Shown here in pieces: positions 33,346 through 35,237 of a stretch of 46,721 nt of DNA. Each line of letters starts with the position of its first letter. Position 1 is the stretch's first letter. This DNA comes from a virus: the IMG/VR virus record IMGVR_UViG_3300028794_000009, positions 1 through 46,721 of that record; one strand, 5' to 3'. The notes under the pieces are model-generated. The model saw only the letters and a program-made list of their open reading frames with translations, did no database searches and was not told the DNA's origin. Made by a program: the position numbers and the translations under genes.

Positions 33346-33385
33346 GCGAGTTGTGGTTGAGTTGCTGTCCTTTTACACAACTCGC
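33346..33385 (-). promoter_or_regulatory. Inverted repeat between capsid and cement genes
   Basis: GCGAGTTGTG (33346-33355) and CACAACTCGC (33376-33385) are a perfect 10-bp inverted pair with a 20-base loop. The capsid stop codon lies at the edge of one arm and the cement ribosome binding site just after the other. No T-run follows, so an RNA-processing or coupling element is more likely than a terminator. Confidence 0.5.
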
Positions 33386-34413
33386 GCTTCGGTTGAAAGC
33401 AAGGCATCGACTTCGCGGATCGGGATGCCGCGATAGCTCATGATTTCCTCGCCGGCTACCTCCATCGGACGCAGGCGGATGAAGCTGTCAGACGCTCCGG
33501 CGTTGCGGCCAAGCTGGTCGAGATAGGCCAGCGTGTCGCGGTTCATATAGATAACCGTGCGGCCGAGGTTCGACGCCGGGCTGCCCTTGATATTAGCGCC
33601 TGGACGCGCCACGCGGCGGCCCTGAAGCTTGTAGTAACCGGCAGCGAGGAAGTCGTAGAGCTTCAGCGTGCCAGCAGCCATCGCGGCGGCCGAGATGTTG
33701 GCGATACGAGCATTCCAGCGGAAGTCCTTGACTGTAAGGCCGGCGTGCCAGGTAAATTTTTCTTCCATCGCATAGAACGGATTGCCCTGCGCGTCGAGAA
33801 TGCGCTGTTTGCCCATGTCCTCGCGCTTGACACCTGCCTGCGTTCCCTTCGGGTAGATCAGCGACGTGGTGTCTTCACCCCAAGTCACGAACCAGATTGA
33901 GGAATTGTCGGAGCCAGCGCCGCCAGCGTCAACGATCTGGTTGCCTGCGCCTGCGCCTCCCTTGATACCGTAGCGCGCCGACAGGCCGAGAATGGTTTCT
34001 GGCGCCGTTGCGGTAGAGCGGTAGAAAAGAGCGCTTGCCATTTCCTGCGACATGGCCTCAAGAAAGCCCTTGGCTTCACCGAGCCGGACGCCGGCAGCAT
34101 TTGGAGAGATGTCGAGGAGGCGAGTGTCAACCGTGGAAAGAGCTTCGAGGAAGCCGGTCGTATCATCGACCTGTTGCTTGCTGGACTTGCTCTGCGGCGT
34201 ACCTTTGTAGAGTTCGCCCCAGGTGACAGTGGGAAGGCCGGTGCGGATGGTGTGACGGTGAAACGTCCCCATGTTGCACTCGATCGCGATGGCGTCGTCA
34301 AGAATGGGGTTGGTGAGGTTCAGAAGCTCGATGATGGTGGCGATCGTCTTGCCATCTTCGGTGGACTTCATCATGTCAATGAGGTTTAGATATGTGTTGC
34401 CAATAGTGGCCAT
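33373..34413 (-). CDS. Major capsid protein (Bbp17-like)
   Basis: The 346-residue protein has the size and layout of BPP-1-type major capsid proteins. It has a helical N-arm ('TIATIIELLNLTNPILDDA'), an E-loop-like 'TGLPTVTWGELYKG' region, a spine helix with 'AKGFLEAMSQEMASALFY' and a C-terminal P-domain ending in 'SYRGIPIREVDALL'. It would form the HK97-fold shell. Gene order scaffold, capsid, cement supports the call. Its start codon lies within one arm of a 15-bp inverted repeat, and AAAGG lies in the loop, so translation may depend on RNA folding. Confidence 0.88.
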   Translation of the reverse strand: MATIGNTYLNLIDMMKSTEDGKTIATIIELLNLTNPILDDAIAIECNMGTFHRHTIRTGLPTVTWGELYKGTPQSKSSKQQVDDTTGFLEALSTVDTRLLDISPNAAGVRLGEAKGFLEAMSQEMASALFYRSTATAPETILGLSARYGIKGGAGAGNQIVDAGGAGSDNSSIWFVTWGEDTTSLIYPKGTQAGVKREDMGKQRILDAQGNPFYAMEEKFTWHAGLTVKDFRWNARIANISAAAMAAGTLKLYDFLAAGYYKLQGRRVARPGANIKGSPASNLGRTVIYMNRDTLAYLDQLGRNAGASDSFIRLRPMEVAGEEIMSYRGIPIREVDALLSTEARVV

Positions 34414-34466
34414 AGCCGTTCTGCCTTTCGTTTCGTCAACTGATACCGCGTGGCAGAACGGCTATG
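34411..34466 (-). promoter_or_regulatory. 15-bp inverted repeat enclosing the capsid start codon
   Basis: CATAGCCGTTCTGCC (34411-34425) and GGCAGAACGGCTATG (34452-34466) are perfectly complementary arms around 26 bases. In the leftward message the second arm ends with the capsid ATG, and the AAAGG ribosome binding site is at the loop edge. A stem this long should hide the start codon unless it is cut, melted or bound. There is no following T-run. The gap 34467-34505 shows nothing else certain. Confidence 0.65.
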
Positions 34467-34505
34467 ATGCATTTGCTTTACACGATATTATTGTGACGCG
34501 CTAGC

Positions 34506-35237
34506 CTACTTCCCATAAAGAATTGTGGCCGCGTCTTCCTTCGCTCCAGACGCGCCGCCGCGTTCGGCCCGGCCCTCGCCCATCGACTTGCCGGCGCGAT
34601 ACATGAACCGGATCATTGACGGATGATTGCCAAGCCCGGTCTTATCGAGCAGCACGCCTAGCTCCTCATCGCCGAACGTCGAGAGGCTTTCACGCGCCAC
34701 GGCCATCTTGGCGTCGTAGTCGTTGCCGCCTAGCTCCTTGTCCGCTTTCACGTCCTTGGCCCAATTGGCGATAGTCTCCGCCGTGCGTTCCGCCTGCTTT
34801 TCCTGGAGTTTGGTTTGGATGGCAACCAGCTTTTCGGCGCCTTTCTGGCTAAGCCCAATTTCCTTGGCGGTCGTCTCGAATTCGGTCTTTACTTCGGCGT
34901 CGATTTCATAGCCTTCAGGCGTCTTGAGATCGTAGGTTTCCGGCGCGCCGAGATAGTCATTCGCGGGCTTTTCTTCCGTCTTTCCTGCCTTGGCGTCGTG
35001 CTCTGCCTTGGCCGCTGCGTTTTCTTCATCCGTCTTGGCCGGATCGGCGACGAATTCAGCCGGAGCAGCAGGCGCAGGCGGCGCGGTCTTGTCTGTCAGG
35101 ATCGTGGCCCCAGGCGCAGCGGCAGGAGCGGCGGCTACGGGTGGGGCTTCAACGGCAGGCGCAGCAGCAGGAGGCGTATCGCTGCCCGTGCCGTCTTCAG
35201 GCGCCCACGTAGGATTGAATGACTTGAAAATGTTCAT
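34506..35237 (-). CDS. Putative scaffolding protein
   Basis: The 243-residue protein has a Pro/Ala-rich disordered N-terminal half (about 15-65), then acidic, helical and coiled-coil-like sequence with 'GLSQKGAEKLVAIQTKLQEKQAERT'. The C-terminus is glycine-rich and charged. This is the common shape of phage head scaffolds, and the gene stands between portal and capsid. AAGGAG and the TAATG overlap with the Bbp19-like gene fix the start. I see no protease motif. Confidence 0.78.
   Translation of the reverse strand: MNIFKSFNPTWAPEDGTGSDTPPAAAPAVEAPPVAAAPAAAPGATILTDKTAPPAPAAPAEFVADPAKTDEENAAAKAEHDAKAGKTEEKPANDYLGAPETYDLKTPEGYEIDAEVKTEFETTAKEIGLSQKGAEKLVAIQTKLQEKQAERTAETIANWAKDVKADKELGGNDYDAKMAVARESLSTFGDEELGVLLDKTGLGNHPSMIRFMYRAGKSMGEGRAERGGASGAKEDAATILYGK

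What the first reader, a model, noticed from the sequence alone, without database searches (positions are those of the whole stretch)
34411..34466. A perfect 15-bp stem hides the major capsid start codon
The arms CATAGCCGTTCTGCC and its complement enclose the capsid ribosome binding site and include its ATG. The capsid gene needs very strong translation, so a stem that covers its start is paradoxical unless it is cut by RNase III (as in T7), melted by coupling from the scaffold gene, or bound by a protein to time capsid production.
Basis: partly seen in the sequence, partly recalled or inferred. Interest (0 to 1): 0.6.

Follow-up and report, generated by a model that had tools for sequence, protein, structure and literature searches.

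The report
Conserved hairpin over capsid start codon
In a small group of uncultured phages, the messenger RNA for the main shell protein folds back on itself over the place where ribosomes must start; relatives keep the fold although its letters have changed, so it is probably a built-in brake or timer on shell production, of a kind known from a few other phage genes.

Summary
A perfect 15-bp inverted repeat (34411-34425/34452-34466) forms, on the minus-strand mRNA, a -29.1 kcal/mol hairpin whose base is the ATG of an epsilon15-gp7-type major capsid gene and whose top holds the GG of its Shine-Dalgarno sequence. Chance is unlikely (2 of 300 shuffles of the whole window contain any 15-bp repeat; none of 3000 leader shuffles reaches it at this place). 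Relatives show that it is a selected RNA structure. In the portal/tail-defined clade, every phage whose capsid start is available (6 leaders, 4 lineages) has a 66-118 nt leader with a stem at the same place but with different letters: GCGACTGCC, (G)TGACTACC, GCCTGC(C). Five pair positions show two-sided changes. The other 242 leaders lack it, bar one possible chance case (L239); most have 2-35 nt between genes. RNase III, scaffold-ribosome melting, split-RBS and riboswitch readings are not supported. Best reading: an RBS-sequestering brake on capsid translation like that of T4 e and soc. Removing the 5' arm restores (W, L213, L149, L131) or partly restores (L134, L219) ordinary accessibility. 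How it is released is unresolved; no conserved promoter was found in the loop. New member of a known kind, on an unexpected gene.

The parts
34452..34466 (-). 5' arm of the hairpin (mRNA CAUAGCCGUUCUGCC)
   Evidence: perfect complement of the 3' arm; fold on the minus strand
34426..34451 (-). 26-nt loop with A-rich 3' half (GACGAAACGAAA)
   Evidence: loop length varies 26-39 nt in relatives
34411..34425 (-). 3' arm of the hairpin (mRNA GGCAGAACGGCUAUG), contains the start codon
34424..34428 (-). Shine-Dalgarno match AAAGG, GG inside the stem; 10 nt before the ATG
   Evidence: sequence; relatives carry AAAGG, AAGGGG or AAAAGGAG at the same place
34411..34413 (-). capsid start codon, bottom three pairs of the stem
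   Evidence: ORF list, conserved N-terminus
33373..34413 (-). major capsid protein gene, epsilon15 gp7 type, 346 aa
   Evidence: Pfam GP7, NCBIfam MCP_gp7_epsi_15, PDB 8cjz/3j4u/3j40
34414..34505 (-). 92-nt capsid leader between upstream stop and capsid ATG; most relatives outside the clade have 2-35 nt
34506..35237 (-). upstream gene, scaffold by position (phrog_458), ends ILYGK-stop like its homologues
34475..34482 (-). TGTAAAGC block; a TAA(A)GC-like block recurs 17-19 nt upstream of CTRCCA in clade leaders; role unknown
   Evidence: sequence comparison
33346..33385 (-). second hairpin, 10-bp stem GCGAGTTGTG/CACAACTCGC with the capsid stop codon in its loop, before the cement (Bbp16-like) gene

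Best explanation
It is a cis-acting RNA hairpin in the capsid leader that sequesters the ribosome binding site. On any mRNA that contains the 5' arm (for example a long polycistronic mRNA running through portal and scaffold), the 5' arm pairs with the SD-to-ATG segment and blocks 30S binding, so capsid translation is uncoupled from the genes upstream. Capsid is then made mainly from mRNA on which the 5' arm is absent or held away. By analogy with T4 e and soc, I think the most likely release is an mRNA whose 5' end lies in the 26-39 nt loop (internal start or cleavage). Shown: the structure, its conservation by compensatory change, its near-restriction to one clade, its effect on predicted RBS accessibility, and that removing the 5' arm removes most of that effect in four of six leaders. 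Inferred: that it represses in vivo. Guess, about 0.35 on its own: the 5'-end-in-the-loop release.
For: Stem of 15 bp at -29.1 kcal/mol covering SD and ATG. Same-place stems in all clade members with the capsid start in hand: L213 9 bp (0 of 3000 shuffles), L149 9 bp (0 of 3000), L131 8 bp (1 of 3000), L134 and L219 6 bp (126 and 142 of 3000, so weak on their own). Pairs 3, 6, 7, 8 and 9 counted from the loop have two-sided changes with pairing kept; pairs 1, 2, 4, 5 are invariant. RBS opening energies rank 1, 2, 8, 9, 10 and 17 of 248 homologous leaders (W 23.2, median 7.2 kcal/mol). With the 5' arm gone they fall to 5.8 (W), 6.8 (L213), 6.4 (L149), 6.2 (L131), 10.4 (L134) and 9.0 (L219). The phages form one portal clade, SH-aLRT 100. 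Loop length varies (26-39 nt) while arms covary, as for RNA rather than a DNA dyad. T4 genes e, soc, 49 and I-TevI are precedents (PMC3014915, PMC2988022).
Against: No conserved promoter places a start in the loop, and the consensus scan shows none there on the minus strand. A major capsid gene needs strong expression, so a brake of this strength is only sensible if it is regularly bypassed, and no bypass has been shown. The clade is small (6 leaders, 4 lineages), L134/L219 stems are short with a bulge, and the weaker stems give opening costs that a few unrelated leaders also reach. No transcript or protein data exist.
Confidence: 0.6

Rival explanations
1. The hairpin is an operator for a phage protein (free capsid or scaffold, or another RNA-binding protein) that holds or opens it and so adjusts capsid synthesis to the pool of assembling subunits.
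For: Inner stem CTRCC/GGYAG and the unpaired A after it are the same in all clade members, as expected for a recognised core. RNA operators at translation start regions are known for T4 gp32 and gp43.
Against: The invariant core is partly explained by the SD itself. The stem occludes without any protein. No RNA-binding protein specific to the clade was looked for.
Confidence: 0.15
2. Static down-tuner: a fixed structure that sets the capsid to scaffold ratio after the two genes were moved apart, without any timing.
For: Opening costs in L149, L131 and L134 (about 13-14) are only about 6 kcal/mol above the family median, a moderate reduction.
Against: W at 23 and L213 at 19 kcal/mol are far beyond tuning. 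Lowering the capsid, the most abundant virion protein, is hard to rationalise.
Confidence: 0.12
3. mRNA processing or stability element (RNase III site or 5'-terminal protective stem), paired with the hairpin after the capsid stop.
For: The capsid cistron is flanked by hairpins at both ends in all clade members. A TAA(A)GC-like block lies upstream at nearly constant distance and could be a start site.
Against: Relatives' stems of 6-9 bp are short for RNase III (general knowledge). A cut in the 3' arm parts SD from ATG. The 3' hairpin also occurs in many relatives without the 5' one. A protective stem need not cover the SD and ATG.
Confidence: 0.08
4. Chance or assembly artefact, or a neutral inverted duplication.
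For: 15-bp repeats do turn up in 2 of 300 shuffled windows; L239 has a 10-bp AT-rich one that may be chance.
Against: Same-place, differently spelled stems in four lineages from separate assemblies.
Confidence: 0.04

Closest known systems
T4 genes e, soc, 49 and intron gene I-TevI: RBS-sequestering leader hairpins relieved by late-promoter transcripts (PMC3014915, PMC2988022)
   Same: Helix covers SD and/or AUG of a late gene on a longer transcript; predicted accessibility returns, fully or in part, when the 5' arm is missing.
   Different: Gene is the major capsid gene of an epsilon15-type phage; no late promoter was found in the 5'-arm region; the stem in W is perfect over 15 bp; arms covary in sequence across the clade.
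T4 genes 25 and 38: hairpin between a distant SD and the AUG that improves initiation (PMC3014915)
   Same: Leader hairpin next to the AUG, confined to one phage clade.
   Different: Here the SD lies in the loop and 3' arm at normal spacing, and in W the AUG itself is paired, so the hairpin cannot bring a distant SD closer.
T7 RNase III processing sites (from general knowledge)
   Same: Stable hairpin between late genes.
   Different: T7 sites lie upstream of the RBS and use longer duplexes; here relatives have 6-9 bp and the stem is on the RBS.
BPP-1, phiV10, Carin1 and Vibrio 1.185 capsid loci
   Same: Homologous capsid gene and gene order (upstream gene, capsid, Bbp16-like or cement gene).
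   Different: Upstream stop to capsid start is 11-19 nt in those fetched (37 in Caulobacter phage Jess A), too short for the leader.

Membership tests
T4 e/soc-type RBS-sequestering leader | SD and/or AUG paired in a stable helix | tested here: met
T4 e/soc-type RBS-sequestering leader | helix selected (pairing kept through changes in relatives) | tested here: met
T4 e/soc-type RBS-sequestering leader | RBS becomes accessible when the 5' arm is missing | tested here: met
   opening energy falls to 5.8-6.8 in W, L213, L149, L131; only to 9.0-10.4 in L219 and L134; family median 7.2; prediction only
T4 e/soc-type RBS-sequestering leader | late promoter in the 5'-arm region giving a start downstream of that arm | tested here: inconclusive
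   best sigma70-like matches 7-8 of 12 and no better than elsewhere; host and promoter type unknown
T4 e/soc-type RBS-sequestering leader | translation repressed on the long transcript in vivo | not testable with these tools
   needs reporter or infection data
T4 gene 25/38 split RBS | SD upstream of the helix, AUG just downstream | tested here: not met
   SD in loop/3' arm, AUG inside the helix in W
RNase III processing site | duplex long enough for RNase III, conserved in relatives | tested here: not met
   6, 8 and 9 bp in relatives; the length requirement is from general knowledge; cleavage itself not tested
Translational coupling to the upstream gene | stop codon close enough for terminating ribosomes to melt the helix | tested here: not met
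   39-70 nt from upstream stop to 5' arm in W, L213, L131, L134; 16 nt in L149
Riboswitch-like toggle | upstream anti-sequestering partner for the 5' arm | tested here: not met
   no helix above chance; no Rfam match in the window

The most novel reading that the evidence does not exclude
The leader is an autoregulatory RNA operator: assembling or free head proteins read or open the hairpin, so that major capsid synthesis in these phages is matched to head assembly.
Probability: 0.15. Interest if true: 0.75.

Novelty: new member of a known kind. Interest (0 to 1): 0.5.

Why it matters
Major capsid genes are usually thought of as simply expressed as strongly as possible. A conserved structure that shuts the start of this gene on long transcripts implies that some tailed phages time or ration shell protein at the level of translation, and the clade gives several natural versions for a plain reporter test.

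Tried and rejected
RNase III site: relatives' stems too short. Scaffold coupling: stop mostly too far from the 5' arm. Split RBS as in T4 gene 25: SD and AUG positions do not fit. Riboswitch-like toggle: no partner above chance. Leader peptide: small ORFs exist (W ATG at -59, 28 codons; L213 MRLPALEGS; L149 MQNFNKG) but start, frame and stop are not conserved. DNA operator: arms change sequence and spacing varies 26-39 nt. Intrinsic terminator: no T run after the stem. Known RNA family: no Rfam match. Mobile or repeated element: three other partial matches (3 mismatches each) in the window, 1.7 expected by chance; no DNA match in phage or plasmid collections; 50 scattered exact matches of the 15-mer in viral contigs, which I took as chance and did not inspect. 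MAFFT alignments of the leaders misplaced the arms or were given wrong coordinates and were not used; pairs were counted on hand-anchored arms. 401 genomes of the order of the Sphingomonas MAG gave 6 capsid homologues; the five new ones show no such hairpin.

Full report
Observation. The inverted repeat is as described: 15 perfect pairs, 26 nt between the arms, and on the minus strand, where the capsid gene lies, a hairpin of -29.1 kcal/mol with z = -6.9. The bottom three pairs are the ATG at 34411-34413; the top two pairs are the GG of AAAGG, the best Shine-Dalgarno match. Under the settings it is the only perfect repeat of 11 bp or more in the window; 2 of 300 locally shuffled windows contain any repeat of 15 bp or more. 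None of 3000 shuffles of the leader comes near it at this position.

Genes. The protein is an epsilon15-gp7-type major capsid protein (Pfam GP7, NCBIfam MCP_gp7_epsi_15, solved relatives 8cjz, 3j4u, 3j40). It is followed by a Bbp16-like gene, at the place of the cement protein of Carin1, and preceded by a scaffold-like gene and the portal gene. The start is conserved in relatives, so the ATG in the stem is very probably the true start.

Relatives. Searches with capsid, portal and tail proteins gave 248 distinct capsid leaders including the window's. Most relatives outside the window's clade have the capsid ATG 2-35 nt behind the stop of the upstream gene, and the GenBank phages fetched have 11-37 nt. 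The nearest phages by portal (54-61% identity, plus a partial one at 48%; others at most 44%) form one clade with the window, SH-aLRT 100. L213 and L219 lack a portal on their contigs and are placed by the tail protein (48% and 55%). In every member whose capsid start is available there is a 66-118 nt leader with a stem in the same place: W 15 bp, L213 9 bp, L149 9 bp, L131 8 bp, L134 and L219 6 bp plus a bulge. L131 and L149 are close to each other, as are L134 and L219, so this is four lineages. Outside the clade one leader, L239, has a 10-bp AT-rich stem in the same place, with its 5' arm inside the upstream gene.

Selection for pairing. Counted from the loop, pairs 1, 2, 4 and 5 are the same everywhere (CTRCC/GGYAG). 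Pairs 3, 6, 7, 8 and 9 change on both sides with pairing kept; the exceptions are one G-U in L134 and one lost outer pair in L131. Shuffling the leaders gives 0, 0, 0, 1, 126 and 142 of 3000 for W, L213, L149, L131, L134 and L219. So the evidence is strong for three lineages and weak for L134/L219 taken alone. Loop length varies from 26 to 39 nt, which fits an RNA stem and not a fixed DNA dyad. The pair table rests on arms anchored by hand, because the automatic alignments misplaced them.

Effect on initiation. The energy needed to open -15 to +5 around the ATG is 23.2 kcal/mol in W and 18.9 in L213, ranks 1 and 2 of 248 (median 7.2); the other four rank 8, 9, 10 and 17. If the RNA starts just after the 5' arm the cost falls to 5.8, 6.8, 6.4 and 6.2 in W, L213, L149 and L131, and to 10.4 and 9.0 in L134 and L219. 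In the first four the 5' arm alone accounts for the occlusion; in L134/L219 other structure contributes.

Mechanism. A stem that shuts SD and ATG on every mRNA carrying the 5' arm is the arrangement of T4 e, soc, 49 and I-TevI; for e and I-TevI, late transcripts that lack the 5' arm are described as translated (PMC3014915, PMC2988022). I take translational sequestration as the most likely function (0.6) and release by an mRNA end in the loop as the most likely route (about 0.35). The weak point is that no conserved promoter is visible there and the host and its promoters are unknown. The alternatives, a protein-bound operator, a static tuner and an mRNA-processing element, are set out separately. 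RNase III, scaffold coupling, split RBS, leader peptide and riboswitch toggle were tested as far as sequence allows and are not supported.

Novelty. The kind is known. Its use on a major capsid gene, in a separate phage group, with covarying arms across lineages, I did not find described in the held papers; that is a limited library and no proof of absence. All functional statements here are predictions from sequence.

Noticed in passing
window 33346-33385 (-), and the equivalent place in L387, L388, L389, L390, L391: A hairpin directly after, or overlapping, the capsid stop codon, before the cement gene. In the wider family capsid-cement gaps of 40 nt or more have a median best hairpin of -16.8 kcal/mol against -6.6 for shorter gaps. 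L134 and L219 differ there by compensatory changes. No T run follows in the window.
   Followed up: partly
window 34475-34482 (-): TGTAAAGC; a TAA(A)GC-like block recurs 17-19 nt upstream of CTRCCA in the clade leaders, outside the scaffold frame in W. It also gives the best promoter-like score of several leaders. Meaning unknown.
   Followed up: partly
L134 and L219 leaders (L390, L391): ACCATTCCG and CGGGATGGT flank the 5' arm, so a pseudoknot is possible in place of the plain hairpin.
   Followed up: no
L239 (also L236) upstream of capsid: A 10-bp AT-rich repeat TTTCAATTCT/AGAATTGAAA with the 3' arm ending at the ATG and the 5' arm inside the upstream gene; outside the clade, may be chance or convergent.
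   Followed up: no
L043 leader: CTCCTTG/CAAGGAG stem of 7 bp over the Shine-Dalgarno of a more distant capsid gene.
   Followed up: no
L044, L133 and L191, capsid N-termini: The reading upstream of the usual capsid start looks like a hydrophobic N-terminal extension in frame with the capsid gene.
   Followed up: no
L233 upstream of capsid: A long poly-G/poly-C stretch that looks like an assembly or sequencing artefact.
   Followed up: no
L130 and L213: Two contigs from the same sample (3300030606), one ending just after the portal gene, one starting upstream of the scaffold-capsid region; possibly one phage, but the ends do not overlap.
   Followed up: partly
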